A stretch of 26,105 bases of DNA from a virus: positions 1 through 26,105 of the IMG/VR virus record IMGVR_UViG_3300035670_001120; one strand, written 5' to 3'. The notes under the pieces are model-generated. The model saw only the letters and a list, made by a program, of their open reading frames with translations. It was not told where the DNA came from and made no database searches. The position numbers and the translations under genes are program-made. Shown here piece by piece: positions 2,195-17,340 of the stretch (positions within the stretch are counted from its first letter, which is position 1; every line of letters begins with the position of its first letter).

Positions 2195-2680
2195 ATGGAA
2201 AAAGAAAAGAAATTGACTCCAGGAAGATTAAATGTAATCTTTGGAAAAAGTGGTGAGTTTTTAATTATTCACAAATTAATGGAACATAAACCCGAATATG
2301 AGATATACACACCCATATTAGATATGAATCATAGTGATTGTATAATAAGAAACCAAAAAGGAGATTATTTACGATTGCAAATAAAAACTTCTAGGGCTAG
2401 TCATAATGGAAATAAATTACATGCGGATGGTTCTATAGAAAAATATGCAAATATCCATTTAGGTGCAAATGTAGAAAATTTAAATTTTGATTATTTAGTT
2501 TGCGCAATATTAGACTTACAAAAAGAATCCTATTCTTATTATATAATTCCAAAAAAAGAAATAGAGCCATATTCTAATTGTGTGAGATTGACTATTAATC
2601 CTGTAGTATATCATAAATTCGACAATTATTTAGATTCTTGGCATTTATTAGACAATATACAAAATGGCACAAATGAATAA
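2195..2680 (+). CDS. PD-(D/E)XK-like nuclease
   Basis: The 161-aa product looks like a small PD-(D/E)XK endonuclease of the resolvase/restriction-like superfamily. It has an N-terminal helix with GKSGEFLI (about residues 17-24, candidate Glu), then a beta strand with Asp in NHSDCIIR (about 45-52), then LRLQIKTS (about 60-67), where QIK takes the place of the (D/E)xK signature. A KTS after the core strand is typical. The start is set by the TATA box 29 bases upstream. It overlaps the following ERCC4-type nuclease by 17 bases, so the two are probably co-translated and may work in viral DNA recombination, replication or host DNA degradation. The residue assignment is by eye; the specificity is unknown. 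Confidence 0.6.
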   Translation: MEKEKKLTPGRLNVIFGKSGEFLIIHKLMEHKPEYEIYTPILDMNHSDCIIRNQKGDYLRLQIKTSRASHNGNKLHADGSIEKYANIHLGANVENLNFDYLVCAILDLQKESYSYYIIPKKEIEPYSNCVRLTINPVVYHKFDNYLDSWHLLDNIQNGTNE

Positions 2681-3119
2681 ATCTCTAGTGTTGGTTGATA
2701 CTCGTGAGAAACTCGCCATACCATTCGAGAGATTCATCAAACGTAAGCTAAACGTGGGAGATTATTCTACACTTGCACTCGAGAATCGTTTTCACATAGA
2801 ACGTAAATCTGGAGCAGATTTATACGGTTCCATAATAGGCAAAAACCACGAGAGATTCCGTAAAGAATTCATAAGAGCCCAAACTAACCAGATACAAATC
2901 CATGTTATGATAGAATGTTCGGAATCTGACTTCTTGCAGAAGAAGTTCAGAGGTGCAGAGAGAATCAAGGGCAAAACAGAACCAGTCCTTAAAGCACTCC
3001 ACACTATGAGCGAGAAGTACGACTTCACATATGAGTTCTGTGGTGACCGAGATACAATGGAGCAAAGAATGCAAAGGCTTTTCTATCTTGCAGAATCTAA
3101 ATTACCGAAAACTATTTAA
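2664..3119 (+). CDS. ERCC4/XPF-family nuclease
   Basis: The 151-aa protein has the full ERCC4 nuclease signature: VDTREK at residues 11-16, VGDY at 31-34, and the catalytic HIERKSGADL at 44-53 (ERK plus the following Asp). A basic helix and an IEC strand follow. XPF/Mus81-family enzymes cut branched or flap DNA structures on one strand, so a role in viral replication forks or recombination intermediates is likely. It lacks the helix-hairpin-helix and helicase domains of cellular XPF, which is usual for stand-alone viral versions. The frame overlaps the upstream nuclease; the start could be ATG 2664 or the in-frame ATG 2673 (MNKSLVLV), which begins right before the first strand. Its base composition is less AT-rich than that of its neighbours, hinting at a different history. 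Confidence 0.88.
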   Translation: MAQMNKSLVLVDTREKLAIPFERFIKRKLNVGDYSTLALENRFHIERKSGADLYGSIIGKNHERFRKEFIRAQTNQIQIHVMIECSESDFLQKKFRGAERIKGKTEPVLKALHTMSEKYDFTYEFCGDRDTMEQRMQRLFYLAESKLPKTI

Positions 3120-3968: not shown

Positions 3969-4580
3969 ATGAAACAATTGACACTATACCCTAAAACTGT
4001 AAGATATAAAGTAAGCGAAATTACTATCACTGAAAAATTAGATGGAAGTAATTTAGGTTTTTTCAAACTAAATGGTCAATTATTGATTGCACAAAGAAAT
4101 AATGTTTATTTTGAAAGCGAATTAGATGGCGCAGTTTCATATAAAGGTTTAAGAGATTGGTTAAACACATTTGGAGAAATATTAAAAAATGAATTATTAG
4201 AAGGTTCAGGAGTATTTGGTGAGTGGATAGGTATGGGTCAGATTAAATATGGTGATAATTTAAAGCATAAATTTTATATATTTGCAAAAGCTAACATAAA
4301 TGAAAATTTCGAGATTAGAAATCTAAATTATGAGCGAGAATTGTTAATTTATCCGTTCCAGTCTAAAAAAATACCATTTTTTATAGATATAGTTCCTGAA
4401 GTATATACAGGTAATGCAATCCTTACATTAGATTTCCTTAATCACCTGTACGAGGTTTATTGTGTTCAAGTAAGCTATAGAAAAGTAGAAGGTTTTGTGA
4501 TTAATAATAATAATACAATCCAAAAATATATAAGATATAAAGACGGTAAGTTTGAAGACCATAAAACTAAAGGTGACTAA
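3969..4580 (+). CDS. RNA ligase (Rnl2-like adenylation domain)
   Basis: The 203-aa protein carries the nucleotidyltransferase motifs of ATP-dependent RNA ligases in order. Motif I is TEKLDGSN, with the adenylated Lys at residue 23. Motif III is GVFGEWIG (81-88), motif IIIa is KFYIFAK (101-107) and motif IV is VEGFVI (173-178). Motif V lies in IQKYIRYKDGKF (184-195). It is a single adenylation domain, shorter than T4 Rnl2 (about 330 aa), and has no C-terminal domain. Phage RNA ligases repair tRNAs or other RNAs cleaved by host defence nucleases; a DNA nick-ligase role is less likely but cannot be excluded. It follows the AbrB-like gene by 2 bases and precedes the next gene by 3, so it is part of the same operon. 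Confidence 0.85.
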   Translation: MKQLTLYPKTVRYKVSEITITEKLDGSNLGFFKLNGQLLIAQRNNVYFESELDGAVSYKGLRDWLNTFGEILKNELLEGSGVFGEWIGMGQIKYGDNLKHKFYIFAKANINENFEIRNLNYERELLIYPFQSKKIPFFIDIVPEVYTGNAILTLDFLNHLYEVYCVQVSYRKVEGFVINNNNTIQKYIRYKDGKFEDHKTKGD

Positions 4581-4583
4581 AAA

Positions 4584-4982
4584 ATGAAAATAATTGATAT
4601 GGACTCTGAGGAATTCAAGAATGTTAAAGTACCAGAAGAGTTAATTCTATCAAACAATACTAATCTATTAGACATTACTCCAGAAAAGTGGAAGGAATTG
4701 GTCGAGGAGATGAATAATCCTGTAGAAGTACAAAAAGAGGTCGCAGCTAAGATGAAATTGTTCGTGGACCATCAAATGCGACAAGATATTAAGGAATATG
4801 GTAAGCTAACAGAAAGCACAAGGAAATATTTAAATGATTATACTACACTTTTATCTGATTTACATAAAAACTTACATGGTAGCAAGTTAAATACTGAGAT
4901 AAATATCGTATCGCATGCCCAAATTTCTGCAAAAATTAGACAAGCCTCAAGAATAATTGATACTAAATCCGAAGAAAAATGA
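4584..4982 (+). CDS. Helical protein of unknown function (possible small terminase)
   Basis: The 132-residue product is acidic to neutral and predicted mostly helical, for example TPEKWKELVEEM (about 32-43) and a long helix through DHQMRQDIKEYGKL. No Cys or membrane segments are seen. It is the first gene of the packaging-side block. Its position before the large terminase, its size and its helical character would suit a small terminase subunit, but the two are separated by homing endonuclease genes and other ORFs, and no helix-turn-helix is clear. Its TGA stop begins the first homing endonuclease cassette. I would annotate it as hypothetical. Confidence 0.65.
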   Translation: MKIIDMDSEEFKNVKVPEELILSNNTNLLDITPEKWKELVEEMNNPVEVQKEVAAKMKLFVDHQMRQDIKEYGKLTESTRKYLNDYTTLLSDLHKNLHGSKLNTEINIVSHAQISAKIRQASRIIDTKSEEK

Positions 4983-4987
4983 CAACA

Positions 4988-4996
4988 TTTATAAAT
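4988..4996 (+). promoter_or_regulatory. TATA box of HNH cassette 1
   Basis: TTTATAAAT begins 31 bases before the first base of the RNA element at 5019. A 10-bp palindrome AGTATATACT lies at 5002-5011. The 29 bases from TGA onward match cassette 2 (6901) perfectly before diverging. Confidence 0.65.
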
Positions 4997-5018
4997 AATC
5001 AAGTATATACTTTATTTA

Positions 5019-5056
5019 GGTGGATGCCACGAACATCTACCGTCTTTTCGTGGAAG
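5019..5056 (+). promoter_or_regulatory. Kissing-loop/pseudoknot leader, copy 1
   Basis: Helix A is GGTGGATG (5019-5026) with CATCTACC (5034-5041), including one G-U pair. Its 7-base loop CCACGAA (5027-5033) is the exact complement of TTCGTGG (5047-5053). That second strand is itself framed by CTT (5044-5046) and AAG (5054-5056), a 3-bp stem. The ATG follows at once at 5057. Copies 2 and 3 have the same layout with different sequences. Confidence 0.75.
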
Positions 5057-5614
5057 ATGGAACAAGAAAATAAAGAAATAATTCTATTCAATAATATTGA
5101 ATTCTATAAGTTAAGAGATTTTCCTAATTATTATATAAGTAAATGTGGAAAAGTATATTCTATCAAAAGAAATATAATTTTAAAAAATACTAAATTTAGC
5201 CAAGGTTATGTTATTCTAACATTAAATAAAAAAAAATATTGTGTACATAGATTAGTAGCAAAACAATTTATAGCTAATCCTGAAAATAAACCTCAAATTA
5301 ATCATATTAATGGAGTTAAACATGATAATAACGTTGAAAATCTAGAATGGTGTACTGGTTCTGAAAATATGATTCATTGTTTTAAAATAGGATTACAAAA
5401 ACCTAAAAAAACTTGGCTAGGTAAAATAGGAAAATTATGCCCTAATAGTAAAAAAGTTAATCAGTACGATTTAAATGGCAATTTTATTAAAACTTGGGAT
5501 AGTTTATCTGATGTAAAAAGAGAATTAAATATTGCTACTTCAACTATTTCTGCAGTATGTGCAAATAAGCGAGGATATAAATCTACGGGTGGATTTATTT
5601 GGAGATATAATTAA
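5057..5614 (+). CDS. NUMOD4-HNH homing endonuclease 1
   Basis: This is a free-standing homing endonuclease of 185 residues. Residues 14-60 form NUMOD4 (FPNYYISKCGKVYS). The HNH core starts with HRLVAKQFI (64-72), then NHINGVKHDN (82-91) and NLEWCT (95-100), which supply the catalytic His and metal ligands. The C-terminal 45 residues form NUMOD1, ending GGFIWRY. Such enzymes nick or cut alleles lacking the insertion so that the gene spreads by repair. The frame is open from an ATG at 4979, but that stretch contains the TATA box and the RNA element, and the alignable protein begins at ME at 5057. It is inserted between the 132-aa gene and the ORF at 5616 and is more AT-rich than the flanks. Confidence 0.88.
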   Translation: MEQENKEIILFNNIEFYKLRDFPNYYISKCGKVYSIKRNIILKNTKFSQGYVILTLNKKKYCVHRLVAKQFIANPENKPQINHINGVKHDNNVENLEWCTGSENMIHCFKIGLQKPKKTWLGKIGKLCPNSKKVNQYDLNGNFIKTWDSLSDVKRELNIATSTISAVCANKRGYKSTGGFIWRYN

Positions 5615-5615
5615 C

Positions 5616-6134
5616 ATGGCACATGTAATCATATTAGTTTATACAACTTCTTTTGTTGCAGGTAAAGATTTAGTTTATGGAGGATTACAACAGATGGAAA
5701 AAGAAATGTCTGAAAGAAAGTATCCTATGAAATTAGAAAGAGAGGGTTATTCTATCCCAGATATTGGGCATTGGGAAATGTTGGAAATAAGAATCAAGAA
5801 GGAAGCACTTCCAGACTTTGCAGCAGACTTAGGCGCAATCAATCTTAATCCTGCAAATAATAAAGTATCTCTCTGGAAGATATTTCGTGCTAAGAAGTTA
5901 AAAGATAATTGTGAAGTTAAAGATAGATACCCTGCAAGACAATTATTATTTGTTCAATGGTGTTTCAAGTGGGCAAATAAACTAGGACTAAGTCCATTCC
6001 ATCCATGCCCTGTAAGTGATAAGAAACCAGAAGCATTTGCACCTAAATCTTGGAAGTATGTAGTTATACTAGGCACTAGACCAGACCCGATTGAGTATCC
6101 TGTACACTCAAAACCGCATGAGGACACACTATGA
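5616..6134 (+). CDS. Unknown 172-aa protein
   Basis: The frame is open further upstream, but those codons overlap the homing endonuclease; the ATG at 5616, one base after that gene's stop, is the natural start. The protein is mixed alpha/beta, with WEMLEIRIKKEALPDFAADL (about 53-72), a basic KIFRAKKLKDN stretch and several Trp and Cys residues towards the C-terminus (QWCFKWANKLG, HPCPVSDKK). I recognise no family. Its stop overlaps the start of the next small ORF (ATGA), so they are coupled. As a direct neighbour of the packaging genes it may act in DNA packaging or head assembly, but this is only context. Confidence 0.7.
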   Translation: MAHVIILVYTTSFVAGKDLVYGGLQQMEKEMSERKYPMKLEREGYSIPDIGHWEMLEIRIKKEALPDFAADLGAINLNPANNKVSLWKIFRAKKLKDNCEVKDRYPARQLLFVQWCFKWANKLGLSPFHPCPVSDKKPEAFAPKSWKYVVILGTRPDPIEYPVHSKPHEDTL

Positions 6135-6259
6135 AACTTAAACTACAAAACGGACACAAGATAGAGATTATTACTCTGCAGGAAAAGAAAGAAGCTATAG
6201 ATTTTGAAAAACACATAGCTGAGTATCATCTATATAATATGATGAGGTACCAACCATGA
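6131..6259 (+). CDS. 42-residue hypothetical protein
   Basis: The short frame starts at ATG 6131, overlapping the TGA of the 172-aa gene, and ends at TGA 6257-6259, overlapping the ATG of the 215-aa gene. The product (MKLKLQNGHKIEIITLQEKK...) has two N-terminal strands and a helix with several His and Tyr residues. The ATGA overlaps on both sides and the exact fit in the gap make it very likely to be translated. No family is recognised. Confidence 0.7.
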   Translation: MKLKLQNGHKIEIITLQEKKEAIDFEKHIAEYHLYNMMRYQP

Positions 6260-6903
6260 ATAAAATATATCAAACAGAACAAACTATGTTTGTTTTTGGT
6301 GTTATGAAAGATGGCAAGAATATCTGGAAGTTGATTAAACGACCGAATAAGATTGTTTTCATAATCAATCAAGTATCAGGCGATTTCCAAGTAATTCTGG
6401 ACACAGATGAGGATATGACTGAGTTCTATACTGATAACCTGCACGGATTTACTATGACAATCTCTAACGACCCACAACAAGACCCGTATGGTGAAGTGAC
6501 TAACTTAGGATACTATTCTATGAAGTTTCATGCATTTGCAGGCTCGTTCCCAGATAAAGGTGCGTTCAGTTATCTGACTAAAGTTAAAATGATTGACGAG
6601 AAACGTCAAATCAAGTCAGCATTACTTAGATATAACTTCCCTTACAAATTCCCAAGCGATATACTAGGGCCTAATACTGCAATCTTTGATAATAATGAGT
6701 CTTACATGGTCTACAAGCTATCATTTATAGATGCAACACCAGACATGTTAGTTGTAGATAAATTAGCAATCATGGGCGAGAATGCATACTTGAGAAAAAC
6801 CATTTATGATATGAGTAATTGTGCAAACGGGTCACAAGTATTGAGTAATGTATTCGTACCTGCAGATAAGTTCAATATTGAACTGGAGAATATGTTGAAA
6901 TGA
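6256..6903 (+). CDS. Unknown 215-aa protein
   Basis: The 215-residue protein has a beta-rich N-terminal half ([32 protein letters not shown]) with many acidic and aromatic residues, and a mixed C-terminal half. No Cys clusters or membrane spans are present. I do not recognise it. It is translationally coupled to the 42-residue ORF upstream, and its TGA begins the second homing endonuclease cassette. It may be a virion or packaging-accessory protein because it is the last host-virus gene before the large terminase, but there is no direct evidence. Confidence 0.7.
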
Positions 6904-6908
6904 CAACA

Positions 6909-6917
6909 TTTATAAAT
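6909..6917 (+). promoter_or_regulatory. TATA box of HNH cassette 2
   Basis: TTTATAAAT begins 31 bases before the RNA element at 6940, the same spacing as in cassette 1. The AGTATATACT palindrome recurs at 6923-6932. Confidence 0.65.
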
Positions 6918-6939
6918 AATCAAGTATATACTATATTTA

Positions 6940-6977
6940 GAGGATTGCTACACCAGTCCTCCACTTTGTGTAGAAAG
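6940..6977 (+). promoter_or_regulatory. Kissing-loop/pseudoknot leader, copy 2
   Basis: Helix A is GAGGATTG (6940-6947) with CAGTCCTC (6954-6961), including one G-U pair. The 6-base loop CTACAC (6948-6953) is exactly complementary to GTGTAG (6968-6973). The second strand is framed by CTTT (6964-6967) and AAAG (6974-6977), a 4-bp stem. The ATG follows immediately at 6978. Compared with copy 1, both helices keep pairing although most of their bases differ. Confidence 0.75.
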
Positions 6978-7601
6978 ATGGAAGAAAAAAATAATTCTGA
7001 GATAATATTATTTGATAATATTGAATTTTATAAGATAAAAGATTTTCCTAATTATGCTGTTAGTAAATGTGGAAAAGTATTAAGTATGAATTTATACAAA
7101 AAAAAAGAATATAAATTATTGAAATCTGCATATAATCATAATAAATATTTAGGAGTAATATTATATAAAGATAAAAAAACATATAATTTTAGAATTAATA
7201 GATTAGTAGCTTTACAATTTATACCAAATCCAGAAAATAAACCTCAAGTGAATCATATTAATGGAATAAAAAATGATAATAGAGTTGAAAATTTAGAATG
7301 GAGTACATCAAGTGAAAATCATTTACATGCATTTAAAATTCTAGGAAAAAAAGCAAATAAACCTTGGTTAGGAATAAAAGGTAATAATAATCCCAGTTTT
7401 AATAAAATAGGTAAATTAAATGCTAAGAGCAAATCAGTAAATCAATATGATTTAGAAGGAAATTTTATTAAAACTTGGGAAAGTGCAAGACAAGCCGCGA
7501 TATATTTAGGGTCAAGAGATGGTTCTGCTATAATAGGTTGTTGTAAAAAAAGAAAATTAACTTTTAAAAATTATATTTGGAGATATGTGAATGAAAACTA
7601 A
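6978..7601 (+). CDS. NUMOD4-HNH homing endonuclease 2
   Basis: The 207-aa protein is a paralogue of the enzyme at 5057. NUMOD4 ([14 protein letters not shown]), the HNH core ([18 protein letters not shown], then [10 protein letters not shown] and NLEWST) and a C-terminal NUMOD1 ending in NYIWRY appear in that order. In the first motif the usual His of HRLVA is replaced by Asn (INRLVA), so catalytic competence may be altered, although NHING and the later His of ENHLHAF are kept. The upstream ATG at 6900 is rejected because the intervening codons are promoter and RNA element. Its end overlaps the terminase start at 7591, showing that the cassette is tightly fitted in front of the terminase gene. 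Confidence 0.87.
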
Positions 7602-9246
7602 ATATGAAGGACCATTTCTTAAAAAAGGAAGATATAGTGAATTAATTCCTAATCTAGTTGCAGATGGTGTAACTGAAGAGATGAACACTATTACTGAAGA
7701 AAAATTTAGGAAATGGGACGAAGTTATTGCAAAGAATTATCTTGAAGGGACCGAAGAACAAAGGAATTACGCTTATTCTTTATTACAAGATGTTACAATA
7801 TATGCTTATGCATTTTTTAGAGTTCCAGGAACATCTAATTCGATTCGTCTGCGTTCTTATCAAGACTTAATTTTAAATCATAACCATAATAGAATACTTT
7901 TTTGTGCTGCAAATCAGTGTGGCAAGTCGTATTCTTTAGCGATAAAAGCAATCCATAAAGCATTATTAAATCCAGGTAAAACTGTATTATTATTATCAAA
8001 AACCATGTCTCAATCCAAAGATTTACTTAAACAAATAAAATTAATATTGAAAAATAGTATAATGGATTATGAATATAGTATTGGTGAAATAGATAATACT
8101 ACTGAAATACATTTTACTCATTTTGAAGAAATGATAGATGATAAAGGAAAAATAATTCAAAAAGAATTGCCTTATTCAAGAATAATTTGTTCTCCTGCAT
8201 CAGAAGCAAGTTTAGGTATTCCAGCATTTTGGATAGGTTTAGATGAATATGCATTTATGGATAATCAAGCAGAATTATTATATCAAGTAATTTTGCCTAG
8301 ATTATTTCAAACTAAAGGAGATTTAATGATATTCTCTAACCCTAATGGGACTGCAAATGAATATTATAAATTATGGGTAGGAGATGTTTTCCATAAATTT
8401 AGATTTACTTTTTTAGATAATCCTGACAATACATTAAAAGAATATACTGAGAATAAACGGATTTTTCCTAGAGCAAAAGCTGAAAGTACTATGGATGCAA
8501 TTTTTTCATCAAGTGATGGAGCATTTTTTTTACCTGAAGAAGTTAGTGCTATGCAAGAACAAAGAGAATCTTATATTCCAATTATAAGTACTGAACAATT
8601 TTATATTTCTTTAGATTTTGCAAAATCTCACGATCATACTTGTAGAATAATAGGTGTACCAAAAAATAATGGAGTATATGTTCATGAAATAAAAATATAT
8701 CCTATTCAAACTCCATATAATATAATAATTGATGATTTAGTTTCTTTAATTCAAGAGATAGGGCCAGATAAATTTGCAATGATTGGATTTGATAGTAATG
8801 GTCCTGGAAATGCAATTTCAGATTGGATTAAAAAAATCAGAGAATTTGGAATACAAATTATTCCAGTTCCTTTTTCATTACAAAAAAAGAATTCGATGTA
8901 TACTATATTAAAATTACTTGCAGAAAGAAATATTAAAGGAGAATACGGTATTAAAATACCTTATACTGATGAAGGAGATTATCAATTAAAATCTTTAATG
9001 ATGAAAACTTCTACTTCTGGTAGAATGATGATTCACCATCAGAATGAAAGTGATTTTGACGATGTGCCAGATTCACTTGCTCTATTATCTTATTTAATTA
9101 TCAATCCAGAAAATCCTCCAGTATCAGTTGAGATAATTGGCCCTACAAAAAATAAAAAATATGATGATGCTTATCGACATACTTGTGGAAACATAATTTC
9201 TGCAGAAGATGATGACTGGTGTAGTTTTTGTAATTGTAAGATTTAG
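7591..9246 (+). CDS. terL: Large terminase subunit (TerL)
   Basis: The 551-aa packaging motor has an ATPase domain with Walker [10 protein letters not shown] (residues 105-113), Walker B WIGLDEY (215-221, D218 and E219) and coupling motif SNPNG (249-253). The RNase H-like nuclease domain has Asp residues at D342 (ISLDFAKS), D401 (GFDSNGPG) and the D490/D491/D494 region ([11 protein letters not shown]). It pumps DNA into proheads through the portal and cuts concatemers. Unusual is a C-terminal 22-residue tail, HTCG...WCSFCNC (530-549), with four Cys and one His that could bind zinc. The start overlaps the end of homing endonuclease 2; there is no separate promoter, so it depends on read-through from upstream. 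Confidence 0.96.
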
Positions 9247-9308
9247 TTAGTCTTATTTTCATTACCAAGTTTTTAACAACTCCGTGAGCGAATCACAAAT
9301 AAGACTAA
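9247..9308 (+). ncRNA. Three-way-junction RNA structure after terL
   Basis: A perfect 12-bp stem, TTAGTCTTATTT (9247-9258) with AAATAAGACTAA (9297-9308), begins on the base after the terL stop codon. Inside are two small hairpins: AGTT/AACT (9268-9271 with 9278-9281) and GTGA/TCAC with loop GCGAA (9284-9296), the latter abutting the main stem. It may be a terminator or a 3'-end processing or stability element. No T-run follows. Confidence 0.5.
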
Positions 9309-9349
9309 ATATAATATAATCTCTATTCTATATAAATTTTATGCAAACA

Positions 9350-9358
9350 TTTATATAC
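9350..9358 (+). promoter_or_regulatory. TATA box before the 173-aa gene
   Basis: TTTATATAC begins 33 bases before the ATG at 9383, predicting a (nearly) leaderless transcript. A GGTATATACT palindrome-like element lies at 9361-9370. Confidence 0.6.
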
Positions 9359-9382
9359 TAGGTATATACTATAATTAATATT

Positions 9383-9904
9383 ATGGCAAAAGGATTTAGA
9401 ACAGAAAAAACAAAAGAAGATATGCATCAAGCAATTAAAGATTCATTATCTGCAGAGGAAGCTCATTTTATCTCAGAACTTAGACAATATGACTCACTTA
9501 AACCAGACTCACTTGCTTGGAAGTTAGCATTACACAATGACACTTTAAGAACTAGCATTAGAAACCAGCAAGAACAAATCTTCAAGAGAATTTGGAATAT
9601 TAAAGATATTCAAAATAAGATTGATAGAGCTAACTTACAATTATCTACTAAAGAAATTTATGAGAAGATTGGAGATTCAGGAATTACTATGAACGAGGAT
9701 GAACTTAAAACATATATTGAACATATGCGTTGGGTTAAGAAAGGAGAGGTTAGAGACATTGCAAAACAACTTCTACAATTAAGAGCTAACGTAGGACATA
9801 TTGATTTACAGAGAAACATTATCATGACTGAAGAGCAATATGAAGAGTATGTACAAAAAATTATGAACGAAATCAAAGGTCTAGGACATGATATTTTCGA
9901 GTAA
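9383..9904 (+). CDS. Unknown helical protein between terminase and portal
   Basis: The 173-aa protein is almost entirely helical and charged, with probable coiled coils through residues 60-90 (RNQQEQIFKRIWNIKDIQNK) and 150-170. There are no Cys residues or membrane spans. It has its own TATA box and follows the terminase by 136 bases. The position between terL and portal, the size and the coiled-coil character fit a small terminase subunit or a portal-associated factor, but I see no DNA-binding motif. Its end overlaps the next gene (ATG 9888) by 17 bases. Confidence 0.7.
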   Translation: MAKGFRTEKTKEDMHQAIKDSLSAEEAHFISELRQYDSLKPDSLAWKLALHNDTLRTSIRNQQEQIFKRIWNIKDIQNKIDRANLQLSTKEIYEKIGDSGITMNEDELKTYIEHMRWVKKGEVRDIAKQLLQLRANVGHIDLQRNIIMTEEQYEEYVQKIMNEIKGLGHDIFE

Positions 9905-10250
9905 GAAATCTAAACCTGTAGAGAAAAGTCTTGCCGTTCCAATGGGCAAGCCAATCAAACCTGAATCAAAAATCAGTTTATTTTTTAAAAAAATAAGAAC
10001 TTTTATAAATAATAAAAGTTATAGTATTCGTATGCAGGCGAATATAATCTCTGCAGAATATCAAGTAAGGGACAAATTCATATTCCTATTAACTCTGATT
10101 ATTAATATATTAGTTACAGGATTAATTATCTGGTACTGTGTCGAATATAGAAATATATTAAGTTATGGTTTAATGGCGATAATGATTACTTATTACTTTG
10201 AAAAGATTGTAGAGATTATAAAGAAACCTTATACAGAAACTAAAAAATGA
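9888..10250 (+). CDS. Small membrane protein with possible dual start
   Basis: The 120-aa frame has a basic, Lys-rich N-terminus (1-48), then two membrane segments at about 64-84 (FIFLLTLIINILVTGLIIWY) and 90-105 (ILSYGLMAIMITYYFE), and a short basic C-terminus. Two short spans with a charged tail are holin-like, although no family is recognised. A strong TATA box at 10002-10010 begins exactly 30 bases before an in-frame ATG at 10032 (Met49), so a 72-residue form (10032-10250) would be made from a leaderless transcript. The long form would be made from the upstream message, whose gene it overlaps. Its stop overlaps the portal start (ATGA). Confidence 0.65.
   Translation: MIFSSKKSKPVEKSLAVPMGKPIKPESKISLFFKKIRTFINNKSYSIRMQANIISAEYQVRDKFIFLLTLIINILVTGLIIWYCVEYRNILSYGLMAIMITYYFEKIVEIIKKPYTETKK
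10002..10010 (+). promoter_or_regulatory. Internal TATA box inside the membrane-protein gene
   Basis: TTTATAAAT lies in the frame as FIN and begins 30 bases before the internal ATG at 10032. It is flanked by an inverted repeat, ACTTTTAT/ATAAAAGT. The same promoter string (AATAAGAACTTTTATAAATA) recurs at 17791-17810. Confidence 0.6.
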
Positions 10251-11692
10251 TTCCAGTAGCTCAATTCATGTCAAGTCGAATATCAACACAAAAAGCAGAT
10301 AATCGACCTATGTTCACTTCTCTTGCTTCAACAGCATCAGTATTACACCCTTCTAGAATAATAGAAACAAGTTATAAAGAATTCTGGCGTAAGTTCAAGA
10401 ACAGCCCAGAACTTGTTGCAACTATTAGTATCCCTATCACAGACATGTTAGGTGATAGACCTGAATGGACTAAACCTGATGGTTCTGCACTTGGTAAAAC
10501 TGAACTTAGAAGAGCTACTCAATTCTGGAGAAACCAGAGAGGGAAGGAAATATTACGTGCAATGTTGTTTGATGCATTCGTTACTGGAGATGGTTATTTA
10601 TGGAAAGGTAAAGTAACTAAGAAAGAAATCACTGCAGCACTTAAAGAAGTATTACTTAAATATCAAGGCGAGTTTAGTTCTCTGCAAATAAAAGAGTTAG
10701 AGTCTAAGATTGCAGAAGATGAGGACATCAAGAATAAGAAACAATTAGATTATGTTGCATCAAGTACTATGAGTATTCTGTACGATGAGTACGACATTTA
10801 TGGTTATGAACAAAATATAATGGATAACATGTCCAAGTTCTCAACTGACGAGATTATACATTTCAGATACTTAGCGCTTGACGGTAAAGTATATGGATTC
10901 TCACCTGTAGAGGCTTTAGCTGCAGAGATATTTTTGCTTACTACAGTTAAACAAAATATGATTTCGTTTATGGAAAATGGTGGAGCTCCAGATAAAGTAT
11001 TCACATTACCTAAAGAACTTGCAGGAAGTAAGAATCACGAATTCTTAATTGAGCAGTTAAGAAAGTATAAAAGAATCCAAAACAGACATGGTAACTTAGT
11101 ATTCACTGGTGAAATGAAGATTGAAGATTTACAAGGCAGCCCAAAAGATTTAGAGTATAAAGATTTAGCTTTGTACACTACATCTAATATTGCATTTGCA
11201 TTCGGTATCCCTATTTCTAGAATCCCGTTCTTGATTGGTAGTTCTGCTACTGGTGGAGATAGTGGAGGTTTATCTGAGAGTGGTTACTGGAACAGGATTT
11301 CAGACTTACAAGATTCATTAGAAGATTTACTTAACAGTCAATTATTTGAGGAACTTGGTTGGGCAATCAAATTCAATCGTAAATATAAAGCCGATGAAGT
11401 GAAAGAAGCACAAATCAATTCAATGAATGCTGACACATTAACTAAAATTCAATCTATCTTACAAAGTCAAGGAAAACAATTGACTATGAATAAAATTAGA
11501 GAATATTTGATGTTAAAAGAAGAAGATTTAGAGGAAAGCACTATGGAATTACAAGTAGAAAATAATACTATGGGGCAGAATCAATTATCTAACTCAGAAG
11601 TTTTAAATGAGGACGATAAAAAAAGAAAGGCTAATACTAAAAGAAACGTGGCCAATAGCAAAGGAACTCGAGAAGCCTTATGGAATCCTTAG
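10247..11692 (+). CDS. Portal protein
   Basis: The 481-aa protein matches the HK97-type portal pattern: an N-terminal arm, a helical/beta body containing MLFDAFVTGDGYLWKG (about 106-121), a central FSTDEIIHFRYLALDGKVYGFSP region with the conserved YG-SPVEAL (around 215-221), a stem helix with ENGGAPD, and the late AFGIPISRIPFLIG strand. A charged C-terminal tail follows. Twelve copies form the ring at one capsid vertex through which TerL packages DNA. The start codon overlaps the stop of the membrane protein (ATGA), and the TAG stop directly precedes the TATA box of homing endonuclease cassette 3. Confidence 0.93.
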   Translation: MIPVAQFMSSRISTQKADNRPMFTSLASTASVLHPSRIIETSYKEFWRKFKNSPELVATISIPITDMLGDRPEWTKPDGSALGKTELRRATQFWRNQRGKEILRAMLFDAFVTGDGYLWKGKVTKKEITAALKEVLLKYQGEFSSLQIKELESKIAEDEDIKNKKQLDYVASSTMSILYDEYDIYGYEQNIMDNMSKFSTDEIIHFRYLALDGKVYGFSPVEALAAEIFLLTTVKQNMISFMENGGAPDKVFTLPKELAGSKNHEFLIEQLRKYKRIQNRHGNLVFTGEMKIEDLQGSPKDLEYKDLALYTTSNIAFAFGIPISRIPFLIGSSATGGDSGGLSESGYWNRISDLQDSLEDLLNSQLFEELGWAIKFNRKYKADEVKEAQINSMNADTLTKIQSILQSQGKQLTMNKIREYLMLKEEDLEESTMELQVENNTMGQNQLSNSEVLNEDDKKRKANTKRNVANSKGTREALWNP

Positions 11693-11693
11693 A

Positions 11694-11702
11694 TTTATAA
11701 AT
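11694..11702 (+). promoter_or_regulatory. TATA box of HNH cassette 3
   Basis: TTTATAAAT follows the portal stop by one base and begins 30 bases before the RNA element at 11724. The downstream stretch to the RNA element has lost the AGTATATACT palindrome seen in cassettes 1 and 2. Confidence 0.65.
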
Positions 11703-11723
11703 AATTAAATATATATAAAATTA

Positions 11724-11765
11724 ATGAGAGATACTCGACCTATCTCTCATCTTTGGTCGAGAAAG
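11724..11765 (+). promoter_or_regulatory. Kissing-loop/pseudoknot leader, copy 3
   Basis: Helix A is a perfect 10 bp: ATGAGAGATA (11724-11733) with TATCTCTCAT (11741-11750). The 7-base loop CTCGACC (11734-11740) is the exact complement of GGTCGAG (11755-11761). The latter is framed by CTTT (11751-11754) and AAAG (11762-11765). The ATG follows at 11766. No helix sequence is shared with copies 1 or 2; the layout and the CTTT/AAAG frame are. Confidence 0.78.
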
Positions 11766-12338
11766 ATGAAACAAGAAGAAATTATTCTATTTGAAAACAT
11801 TGAGTTTTACAAGTTAAAAGATTATCCTAATTATGCATTAGCTAAAACGGGAGAATTGTTAAGTTTAAGATATTTAAATTCTAATAAATTAAAAATATTA
11901 AAACCTTTAAAATCAAGTAAATATATGGAGTATGCTATAGGTAAATCTTACCATAAAACAATCCATAGGTTACTTGCAGAAACTTTTATTCCTAATCCAG
12001 ATAATAAACCTTGTGTTAATCATATAGATGGAAATAAGTTAAATAATACTGTAGATAATTTAGAATGGTGCACTTATTCTGAAAATCATTTGCACGCATA
12101 TAAAAATAATTTGATGAAAGCTCCTTGGAAAAATAAAAAAGGAAAAGATTTCCCTTTAAGTAAAAAAGTAGACCAATACGATAAAAAAGGTAATTTTATC
12201 AGAACTTGGGATAGCATTGCAGATGTCGAAAGAGAATTAAAATTAGAAAGTTCTTCAATAAGTTTATGTTGTAGAAATATTTCTTATAAATCAGTAGGTA
12301 ATTATGTTTGGAAGTATAATTCTCCACAAGATTTATAA
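11766..12338 (+). CDS. NUMOD4-HNH homing endonuclease 3
   Basis: The 190-aa paralogue has NUMOD4 (YPNYALAKTGELLSL), an HNH core (IHRLLAETFIPNPDNKP, NHIDGNKLNN, NLEWCT, ENHLHAY) and NUMOD1 (VDQYDKKGNFIRTWDS to VWKYN). All expected catalytic His and Asn positions are present. An in-frame ATG at 11724 exists, but it lies inside the 10-bp RNA stem, so 11766 is preferred. It is inserted between the portal and the protease-capsid genes, and its last codons contain the TATA boxes of the next gene. It probably homes into this intergenic site in related viruses. Confidence 0.88.
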   Translation: MKQEEIILFENIEFYKLKDYPNYALAKTGELLSLRYLNSNKLKILKPLKSSKYMEYAIGKSYHKTIHRLLAETFIPNPDNKPCVNHIDGNKLNNTVDNLEWCTYSENHLHAYKNNLMKAPWKNKKGKDFPLSKKVDQYDKKGNFIRTWDSIADVERELKLESSSISLCCRNISYKSVGNYVWKYNSPQDL

Positions 12339-14414: not shown

Positions 14415-15050
14415 ATGACTATGAGATACTATAACCAAACTCCTGAACATATTGAAAAACAAATTGTTGATTTATATGTTAATGGGAAATATGGTTCTGT
14501 CACGATTAGTCAAAAATTAGATATAACTAAAAGAACAGTATTAACTGTACTTAATAGATACAATATTCCGAGAAGAAATCATAAAGAAGCATTAAAATTG
14601 CTACATGAAACAGGATTTCAAGTATGGAATAAAGATATCAAAGCCCCTCAAATTAGTAAAGCTAAATTTGGAAAAAAAAGACCTGACTTAATTGGAAATA
14701 CTTTTAGTAAAGGTAAAAGATTAGGTCATACGACTGGGTTTAAAAAAGGTCAAATTCCTTGGAATAAAAATATTAAAACTAATATAAAACCTTGGAATTA
14801 TATTGATGGTTTGAGTAACCACAAATATGGACCTGATTGGAATGAAGTAAGAAAACAAGTATTAATTAGAGATAATTTAACTTGTCAATCTTGTGGAGTT
14901 CAATATGTTCGTTTAGATGTTCACCATATAATACCTTTCAGATATGGTGGAAAAAATACTCTTGACAATTTAATTACAGTTTGTAGAAATTGTCATATGA
15001 GAATTGAAAGGAAAACACAAAAAATAATAAATAAAAAATGGCAGCAGTAG
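14415..15050 (+). CDS. HTH-NUMOD3-HNH homing endonuclease 4
   Basis: The 211-aa protein is a different class from the other three. It has an N-terminal helix-turn-helix (about residues 10-52), a run of NUMOD3-like Lys/Gly/Phe repeats (about 68-118, with KFGKKRPDLIG and GFKKGQIPWNK), and a C-terminal zinc-stabilised HNH: CQSC (157-160), DVHHIIP (168-174), NTLDNL (181-186) and CRNCH (190-194). It is thus a His-Cys/HNH nuclease with DNA-binding repeats. It lacks the kissing-loop leader. The start could be ATG 14415 or ATG 14421. Its C-terminus overlaps the start of the 90-aa gene by 13 bases, so the insertion sits right at that gene's 5' end. Confidence 0.87.
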   Translation: MTMRYYNQTPEHIEKQIVDLYVNGKYGSVTISQKLDITKRTVLTVLNRYNIPRRNHKEALKLLHETGFQVWNKDIKAPQISKAKFGKKRPDLIGNTFSKGKRLGHTTGFKKGQIPWNKNIKTNIKPWNYIDGLSNHKYGPDWNEVRKQVLIRDNLTCQSCGVQYVRLDVHHIIPFRYGGKNTLDNLITVCRNCHMRIERKTQKIINKKWQQ

Positions 15051-15999: not shown

Positions 16000-17340
16000 A
16001 TGGTGCAAGAATCAGAACACCAGATTGCAAATGAAGAACATAGAACAAGTATAAATGCCAAAGCAGTTACTATGGTAAGTGGTGATAATGGTTCAAGTAT
16101 AAGTCTAATGAACCCATTACCTGTGGGATTTGGAGATAGTGCTAATATAGATGCATTTAGTAGACTTAGAGTATCACAACCTACAAACTTATTTTCTGTG
16201 TCAGCACAATATGGTGCAGTTACTGTTCAAATGGAGAGGGGTGCAACAGGTACAGGTATAGTTCCTACGCATGATGCAAATACGAGATTATGTGTCCTTA
16301 GTTGTACTGCAGGTTCAGGTACATCATTTATGCAATCATATAAGTATATCCCATATCAGCCAGCCAAGTCTCACGAGATTGCAGTTACGTTTGTGTGTGG
16401 TGCTGCAGTTGCTGGAGCAGTATTTGAAGCAGGATATTTCGATACTTATAATGGAATATTTTTCAGACAGAATGGAACTTCAGGATTACAAGTAGTTAGA
16501 AGAACATCTACTTCAGGTTCTGTTGTGGATAATGCTGTAAACCAAGCAGACTGGAACATAGATAAATTAGACGGTACAGGTAGAAGTGGATTGACATTAG
16601 ATATTACAAAAGCACAAATCCTATTCATCGACCTGCAATTCTTAGGCATGGGTAGAGTTAGATGTGGATTTGATATTGATGGTGTTCTATATTATTTCCA
16701 TGAATTTAAAAATGCAAATAATTTAGATGTACCTTATATGCAATCAGGAACATTACCTCTCCAAATCTTAGTAACTGCAACATCTACAGCAACCACTAAA
16801 ACAAGTTATTTTAAATGTGCAGCAGTTCATAGTGAAGGTGGTTTTGAAGAAGATAGAGCATATCAATTATCAACACCAGATGTAAGTGCAACAGCTGGAA
16901 ATGGCACTAGAGCACATATTGTATCAATCAGACCTAAAACGACATATAATGGGATAATAAATCGTGAAGATTTAGTATTAGGTCCTATTTCTATGCTTGT
17001 GACAGGAAATTCTCCAGTTTATTGGGAATTATTAATAGGTGGAACATTTAGTGTTGCTCCAACATGGGCAGACATAAATACAGCAAGTTCGGCATTTGAG
17101 TATGGAACAGGAGGAACATTTTCAGGACTTGGTACAGGAGGTATAGTTATTGCAAGTGGTTATGTTGCTGCAAGTGCGCAACAAAAAGAAGCATTATCTG
17201 CAGACATTACAAGTAAGTATGCTTGTGCATTAAACAGGGCTGGCGCACAAATAGCAACAGGAACATTCACTTTAGTTGCAACAGGAATTGGTGCAGCATC
17301 TGCTATGCGTGCAGCAATTAACTTTAAGGAGATAAGATAG
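16000..17340 (+). CDS. Virion structural protein (446 aa)
   Basis: The N-terminal region contains DAFSRLRVSQPTNLF (about residues 51-65), a signature I associate with phage structural proteins that start DAFGRLRVS-P. It is followed by long beta-rich, Gly/Thr/Ala-rich stretches with a jelly-roll or lectin-like middle (GIFFRQNGTSGLQVV, WNIDKLDGTGRSG) and a C-terminal Ala-rich beta region. It is probably a head-surface fibre or decoration protein, because it sits between the capsid and connector genes. It has no membrane span. It follows the previous gene by 1 base and precedes the next by 3. Confidence 0.72.
   Translation: MVQESEHQIANEEHRTSINAKAVTMVSGDNGSSISLMNPLPVGFGDSANIDAFSRLRVSQPTNLFSVSAQYGAVTVQMERGATGTGIVPTHDANTRLCVLSCTAGSGTSFMQSYKYIPYQPAKSHEIAVTFVCGAAVAGAVFEAGYFDTYNGIFFRQNGTSGLQVVRRTSTSGSVVDNAVNQADWNIDKLDGTGRSGLTLDITKAQILFIDLQFLGMGRVRCGFDIDGVLYYFHEFKNANNLDVPYMQSGTLPLQILVTATSTATTKTSYFKCAAVHSEGGFEEDRAYQLSTPDVSATAGNGTRAHIVSIRPKTTYNGIINREDLVLGPISMLVTGNSPVYWELLIGGTFSVAPTWADINTASSAFEYGTGGTFSGLGTGGIVIASGYVAASAQQKEALSADITSKYACALNRAGAQIATGTFTLVATGIGAASAMRAAINFKEIR

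What the first reader, a model, noticed from the sequence alone, without database searches (positions are those of the whole stretch)
5019..11768. Covarying two-hairpin kissing-loop/pseudoknot RNA directly before the AUG of three homing endonuclease genes
At 5019-5056, 6940-6977 and 11724-11765 the same layout recurs: an 8-10-bp hairpin whose entire 6-7-base loop is complementary to a second 6-7-base segment, itself framed by CTT(T) and AAA(G), then AUG with no spacer. Helix A: GGTGGATG/CATCTACC, GAGGATTG/CAGTCCTC, ATGAGAGATA/TATCTCTCAT. Loop pairing: CCACGAA/TTCGTGG, CTACAC/GTGTAG, CTCGACC/GGTCGAG. All pair perfectly apart from one G-U in each of the first two A helices, while the sequences differ almost totally. 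That is compensatory change in two helices across three copies. I know of no described RNA family with this form; it may be a translational switch or stability cap for HNH homing genes.
Basis: partly seen in the sequence, partly recalled or inferred. Interest (0 to 1): 0.93.

Follow-up and report, generated by a model that had tools for sequence, protein, structure and literature searches.

The report
Folded leader RNAs on homing-endonuclease genes
A virus, probably of archaea, carries three selfish DNA-cutting genes whose messages each appear to start with a small knotted RNA fold; the three folds differ in sequence but keep the same shape, which points to a built-in brake or switch on making the enzyme.

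Summary
In front of three HNH homing-endonuclease genes (ORFs from 5057, 6978, 11766) lie three ~40-nt elements. Each has an 8-10-bp hairpin (H1) whose whole 6-7-nt loop is complementary to a segment 4-6 nt downstream, then AUG. All 46 pairs form (44 Watson-Crick, 2 G.U). Of 15 pairs aligned across copies, 12 change on both sides and none breaks. The strict layout occurs at these three starts and nowhere else on the + strand; 0.013 are expected. The downstream segment is also the loop of a second hairpin (H2) that pairs with the start codon (in copy 3 only by opening H1's base). Literal kissing of both intact hairpins in one molecule is sterically excluded; a tight H-type pseudoknot and an H1+H2 form exclude each other. 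Best reading: a 5'-terminal, probably bistable translational brake, like the RBS-hiding hairpins of phage T4 homing endonucleases. Function is inferred. No further copy was found in viral contigs or 523 archaeal genomes; the evidence rests on three paralogues in one virus.

The parts
4988..4995 (+). TATA box TTTATAAA of copy 1, 31 nt before the H1 base
   Evidence: sequence; spacing as for leaderless genes of the virus
5019..5041 (+). Copy 1 hairpin H1: GGTGGATG-(CCACGAA)-CATCTACC, 8 bp, one G.U
5047..5053 (+). Copy 1 segment S2' TTCGTGG, complementary to the whole H1 loop 5027-5033
5040..5060 (+). Copy 1 hairpin H2: CCGTCTT/AAGATGG around S2', includes the AUG at 5057-5059
5057..5614 (+). Homing endonuclease 1 (HNH_3 + NUMOD1); in-frame upstream starts ATG 5024 and ATG 4979
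6909..6916 (+). TATA box TTTATAAA of copy 2, 31 nt before the H1 base
6940..6961 (+). Copy 2 hairpin H1: GAGGATTG-(CTACAC)-CAGTCCTC, 8 bp, one G.U
6968..6973 (+). Copy 2 segment S2' GTGTAG, complementary to the whole H1 loop 6948-6953
6961..6981 (+). Copy 2 hairpin H2: CCACTTT/AAAG(A)TGG around S2', includes UG of the AUG at 6978
6978..7601 (+). Homing endonuclease 2 (HNH_3 + NUMOD1); in-frame upstream starts TTG 6945 and ATG 6900
11694..11701 (+). TATA box TTTATAAA of copy 3, 30 nt before the H1 base
11724..11750 (+). Copy 3 hairpin H1: ATGAGAGATA-(CTCGACC)-TATCTCTCAT, 10 bp; begins with an in-frame AUG
11755..11761 (+). Copy 3 segment S2' GGTCGAG, complementary to the whole H1 loop 11734-11740
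11747..11769 (+). Copy 3 alternative hairpin H2: TCATCTTT/AAAGATGA around S2', includes the AUG at 11766; its TCAT is shared with the base of H1
11766..12338 (+). Homing endonuclease 3 (HNH_3 + NUMOD1); in-frame upstream start ATG 11724

Best explanation
The element is the folded 5' leader of the homing-endonuclease mRNAs of one virus, probably archaeal, and it acts as a translational brake or switch in cis. Transcription from a TATA promoter starts at the base of H1, so H1 buries the 5' end, which in this virus is normally left free for leaderless initiation. The start codon, which has no Shine-Dalgarno sequence, lies next to or inside a second helix, H2. The segment forming H2's loop (S2') can instead pair with the H1 loop as a tight H-type pseudoknot, which opens H2 and leaves AAAG-AUG single-stranded. 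H1+H2 (start blocked) and H1+S2 (start more open) exclude each other, giving a two-state leader that keeps expression low or conditional. Shown by sequence: the pairings, their compensatory changes, the position at the predicted 5' end, H2 overlapping the AUG. Inferred: the transcript start, the direction of the switch, the trigger (the endonuclease itself, a viral RNA-binding protein, or the ribosome) and the benefit (timing or damping of a DNA-cutting enzyme).
For: Three sites versus 0.013 expected, all at homing-gene starts. 12 of 15 pairs change on both sides, none broken. The elements are still ~60% identical and so look homologous rather than unrelated. Both non-Watson-Crick pairs are G.U, as RNA allows. 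TTTATA-to-H1 distance 31, 31 and 30 nt, against 29-33 nt from TTTATA to ATG for genes of the same virus that look leaderless; promoters of the same kind with a leaderless ATG occur in genomes of the Nanoarchaeota group. The 40 nt before these three AUGs fold at about -11 kcal/mol, the strongest of 34 starts in the window; next is -8.6. The AUG is paired in H2-type hairpins in the minimum-energy folds of copies 1 and 2. H1 survives in longer read-through transcripts. Geometry permits the pseudoknot if S2 keeps 5-6 bp and, in copies 1 and 3, 1-2 basal H1 pairs open. Precedent: hairpins hide the RBS of I-TevI, I-TevII, I-TevIII, segB and mobE in T-even-type phages (PMC2988022).
Against: Three paralogues in one record; no independent copy found. 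Start-codon occlusion itself is not exceptional: mean unpaired probability 0.17-0.39, inside the range of other starts in this virus. In copy 3 the full 10-bp H1 and the full 8-bp H2 compete for the same TCAT, so H2 is weak there. An in-frame start lies in the 5' strand of H1 in all three copies (ATG 5024, TTG 6945, ATG 11724), so part or all of the leader could be coding. Pseudoknot energy was not computed. No transcript or probing data.
Confidence: 0.55

Rival explanations
1. 5'-end stability structure: the 5'-terminal hairpin or pseudoknot protects the mRNA against 5'-to-3' exonucleases and has no regulatory role in translation.
For: H1 sits at the predicted extreme 5' end in all copies; only fold, not sequence, is kept.
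Against: A plain hairpin would serve; it does not explain the exact complementarity of the whole loop or why AUG follows without spacer inside H2.
Confidence: 0.15
2. DNA operator: the interleaved inverted repeats are a repressor site at the transcription start, perhaps bound by the homing enzyme itself, as I-TevI represses its own promoter.
For: I-TevI binds an operator resembling its homing site and represses its own late promoter (PMC2988022); the repeats lie at the predicted start site.
Against: Half-sites are contiguous as in a hairpin and its loop; the only two imperfect pairs are both G.U (about 1 in 36 if mismatches were random; inference); no similarity to the insertion junctions was evident by eye.
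Confidence: 0.12
3. Loop-loop pairing between molecules: two copies of one mRNA dimerise through H1-H2 kissing, or the leader pairs with an antisense RNA; each gene has its own loop code.
For: Both loops are wholly complementary, the wrong shape for intact kissing in cis but possible in trans; the three loop codes hardly cross-pair (own -5.8 to -10.7, cross +0.5 to -2.9 kcal/mol).
Against: Needs high local mRNA concentration; no antisense transcript known; a cis pseudoknot explains the same pairing.
Confidence: 0.08
4. Coding N-terminal extension: leaderless or near-leaderless initiation at ATG 5024, TTG 6945 and ATG 11724 makes the element part of the protein, with the RNA fold tuning that initiation or a by-product.
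For: All three upstream starts are in frame and open; copy 3's AUG stands at the leaderless distance from TATA; copies 1 and 2 also have ATGA overlaps with the upstream stop codons at 4979 and 6900.
Against: Encoded peptides [22 protein letters not shown] and MRDTRPISHLWSRK are barely alike, while base pairing is kept; relatives start close to the domain core without such an extension.
Confidence: 0.1

Closest known systems
RNA hairpins that sequester the RBS of T-even phage homing endonucleases (I-TevI, I-TevII, I-TevIII, segB, mobE)
   Same: Structured leader directly at the start of homing-endonuclease genes; start site occluded; copies 1 and 2 also share the stop/start (ATGA) overlap with the upstream gene, as mobE's UAAUGA does (PMC2988022).
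   Different: There one hairpin hides a Shine-Dalgarno sequence on upstream transcripts and is absent from the late transcript. Here there is no SD, the fold sits at the 5' end of the gene's own transcript, and a second, pseudoknot pairing is conserved.
Bacteriophage T4 gene 32 mRNA pseudoknot (translational operator)
   Same: 5'-terminal pseudoknot of a viral mRNA ahead of the initiation region, diverging in sequence between phages (PMC535899).
   Different: Gene 32's pseudoknot lies upstream of a less structured >40-nt operator and binds gp32; here the fold abuts the AUG, and no protein partner is known.
preQ1-I-type small H-type pseudoknots near the start site
   Same: Minimal hairpin whose loop pairs with nucleotides just downstream, next to the initiation region (from general knowledge; not tested beyond Rfam).
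   Different: No Rfam match on the elements even at a loose threshold; no conserved ligand pocket, the paired sequences vary freely.

Membership tests
HNH homing endonuclease of the I-HmuI kind (HNH_3 + NUMOD1), for the genes | HNH_3 nuclease domain | tested here: met
   All three above the gathering score; profile matches I-HmuI 1u3e chain M, E 5e-12
HNH homing endonuclease of the I-HmuI kind (HNH_3 + NUMOD1), for the genes | NUMOD1 DNA-binding module | tested here: met
   Above the cut-off in all three when copy 3 is read from ATG 11724; 22.7 bits against 22.8 from ATG 11766
   Sub-threshold in copies 1 and 2 (17.1 and 16.4 bits against 23.4), absent in copy 3
T4-type homing-endonuclease RBS-sequestering hairpin | Shine-Dalgarno sequence hidden in a hairpin | tested here: not met
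   No SD-like sequence upstream of the three AUGs; the AUG itself is in H2
T4-type homing-endonuclease RBS-sequestering hairpin | Late promoter placed so that late transcripts lack the hairpin | tested here: not met
   TATA-to-H1 spacing puts the predicted start at the base of H1, so the gene's own transcript keeps the fold
H-type RNA pseudoknot | Hairpin loop pairs with a downstream single strand, both helices conserved by compensatory change | tested here: met
   12 of 15 pairs changed on both sides, 0 broken; three copies only
H-type RNA pseudoknot | Loops long enough to cross the grooves | tested here: inconclusive
   Ideal A-RNA geometry needs L1 of 1-2 nt and L3 of about 6 nt; observed L1 0, L3 4-6; feasible only with fraying of end pairs
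H-type RNA pseudoknot | Formation in solution | not testable with these tools
   needs chemical probing
Intramolecular kissing-loop complex | Both hairpin stems intact while the loops pair | tested here: not met
   53-59 A to bridge against 7-21 A of linker
Any described RNA family (Rfam 15) | Covariance-model match | tested here: not met
   None at gathering; none overlapping the elements at E <= 5

The most novel reading that the evidence does not exclude
A previously undescribed class of 5'-terminal bistable mRNA leader for selfish nuclease genes in an archaeal virus, in which a hairpin loop and the loop of a start-codon hairpin carry a gene-specific complementary code, so that the state of the leader (pseudoknot, occluded start, or mRNA dimer) sets endonuclease output and keeps the three paralogues from cross-talking.
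Probability: 0.2. Interest if true: 0.8.

Novelty: new variant of a known kind. Interest (0 to 1): 0.58.

Why it matters
Structured leaders that hold back homing endonucleases are described for T-even-type bacteriophages. A conserved, compensatorily changing leader at the very 5' end of homing-gene mRNAs in a virus with leaderless, TATA-type expression would suggest that restraint of these selfish enzymes by RNA structure also arose under archaeal-type translation, by a different design: hiding the 5' end and the AUG rather than a Shine-Dalgarno sequence. It gives a ~40-nt, three-variant system that can be tested directly with compensatory mutants.

Tried and rejected
Rfam at gathering and loose thresholds: nothing on the elements. 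L079:1088 looked similar but lies before an unrelated ORF. Viruses related by the structural protein at 16000: 31 contigs, no copy. Archaeal homing-gene relatives in 371 genomes of the Nanoarchaeota group, 393 of the Methanosarcina group and 152 of the Methanobrevibacter group: relatives exist, none with the element. Covariance model R1: only the three training copies at 89-97 bits; next in the window 20.9; in 371 + 152 archaeal genomes only 30-35-bit matches, several of them leaderless-type promoters, none with the full layout. R1 holds H1, H2 and the promoter, not S2, and copy 2's H1 is shifted by one in its alignment, so it is a weak probe. Terminase and capsid searches found no relatives. 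HNH-linked ribozymes or guide RNAs were considered and dropped: the element is ~40 nt and nothing in Rfam matches. My first groove assignment was swapped and is corrected; the end-to-end kissing distance is not affected.

Full report
What is there. The window is a whole IMG/VR record of 26,105 nt with terminase, portal, SU10-like capsid and tail genes. Three homing-endonuclease genes with HNH_3 and NUMOD1 domains, 55-57% identical to copy 1 and related to I-HmuI, sit between structural genes. In front of each is a ~40-nt element: hairpin H1 (8, 8, 10 bp), whose whole loop (7, 6, 7 nt) is complementary to a segment S2' that starts 4-6 nt after H1, then AAG/AAAG and AUG.

Is it more than chance? 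Yes. The strict layout occurs at exactly these three places on the + strand against 0.013 expected in shuffles, and per-leader shuffles pass about once in 50,000-200,000. The three elements keep about 60% identity with gaps, near the top of the shuffled range, so they look homologous, yet 12 of 15 pairs aligned in more than one copy are changed on both sides and none is broken. The alignment behind that tally is my own structure-based one, which leans towards the structure; the chance test does not depend on it. The two non-Watson-Crick pairs are both G.U.

Where it sits. TTTATA begins 31, 31 and 30 nt before the H1 base. In the same virus the genes that look leaderless have TTTATA 29-33 nt before ATG (2195, 3558, 9383, 12365). 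Promoters of this type with a leaderless ATG occur in genomes of the Nanoarchaeota group (L255, L346, L349), although the 22-nt promoter pattern also matches many bacterial contigs. The simplest reading is an archaeal virus whose homing-gene mRNAs begin with H1 itself. The host is inferred, not shown. Copy 3's H1 even begins with an in-frame AUG at the leaderless position; copies 1 and 2 have in-frame ATG 5024 and TTG 6945 in the 5' strand of H1. In copies 1 and 2 an ATG overlaps the stop codon of the gene upstream (ATGA), so coupled translation of read-through transcripts is another possible route.

Second hairpin. S2' is also the loop of H2, whose stem covers the start codon: CCGUCUU/AAGAUGG, CCACUUU/AAAG(A)UGG, UCAUCUUU/AAAGAUGA. 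In copies 1 and 2 the minimum-energy fold is H1 plus a start-codon hairpin of the H2 type; in copy 3 the full H2 needs the base of H1 to open. The 40 nt before these AUGs are the most strongly folded of 34 starts examined, but the start codons are not unusually occluded compared with other genes of this virus.

Geometry. With 0-2 nt between the hairpins, H1 and H2 cannot both stay intact while their loops pair: about 53-59 A would have to be bridged by 7-21 A of linker. The H-type pseudoknot H1+S2 needs 1-2 unpaired loop nucleotides on the 5' side and an L3 of about 6 nt. It is feasible if S2 keeps 5-6 bp and, in copies 1 and 3, one or two basal H1 pairs open (the L1/L3 columns are swapped, corrected). 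So the leader has two mutually exclusive states in cis, or pairs in trans. The three loop codes hardly cross-pair.

Function. The most likely role is a cis-acting translational brake or switch on a DNA-cutting selfish gene. The direct parallel is the RBS-sequestering hairpins of homing endonucleases in T-even-type phages (PMC2988022). The T4/RB69 gene 32 pseudoknot is a parallel for a sequence-diverging 5' viral operator (PMC535899). It fails two defining features of the T4 homing-gene device: there is no Shine-Dalgarno sequence to hide, and the gene's own promoter does not exclude the fold. It therefore works like it, but is not a member. Trigger and direction of the switch are inference.

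Spread. No further copy was found in the relatives and collections searched. The N-terminal segment EIILFxNIEFYKLKDFPNY found no close relative in genome or viral collections beyond two partial matches. The claim rests on three paralogues in one genome.

Noticed in passing
window 4979-5018 and 6900-6939: The 40-nt promoter blocks of copies 1 and 2 differ at one position (39/40), while the genes behind them are only ~57% identical in protein, suggesting recent exchange or strong constraint on the block.
   Followed up: partly
window 14415-15050: A fourth HNH gene (PF01844 type) of another family sits after the capsid gene and lacks the folded leader.
   Followed up: partly
window 2664-3119 and 3969-4580: ERCC4-type nuclease and an RNA ligase encoded by the virus.
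   Followed up: no
window 16000-17340: Virion structural protein of PHROG 1645, related to proteins of cyanophages and HMO-2011, although the virus's promoters look archaeal.
   Followed up: partly
L079:1088-1135: A 10-bp hairpin whose 8-nt loop is wholly complementary to a segment 6 nt downstream, just before an ORF start (GGGGTGGCTG TCCTTAAC CAGCCACCCC ACCAGC GTTAAGGA AAGAGAATG); same topology, unrelated gene.
   Followed up: partly
L226:10258 and L227:10259: Two related contigs share a 9-10-bp hairpin with loop CGTCAG, part of which can pair with a downstream TGATG; no covariation.
   Followed up: no
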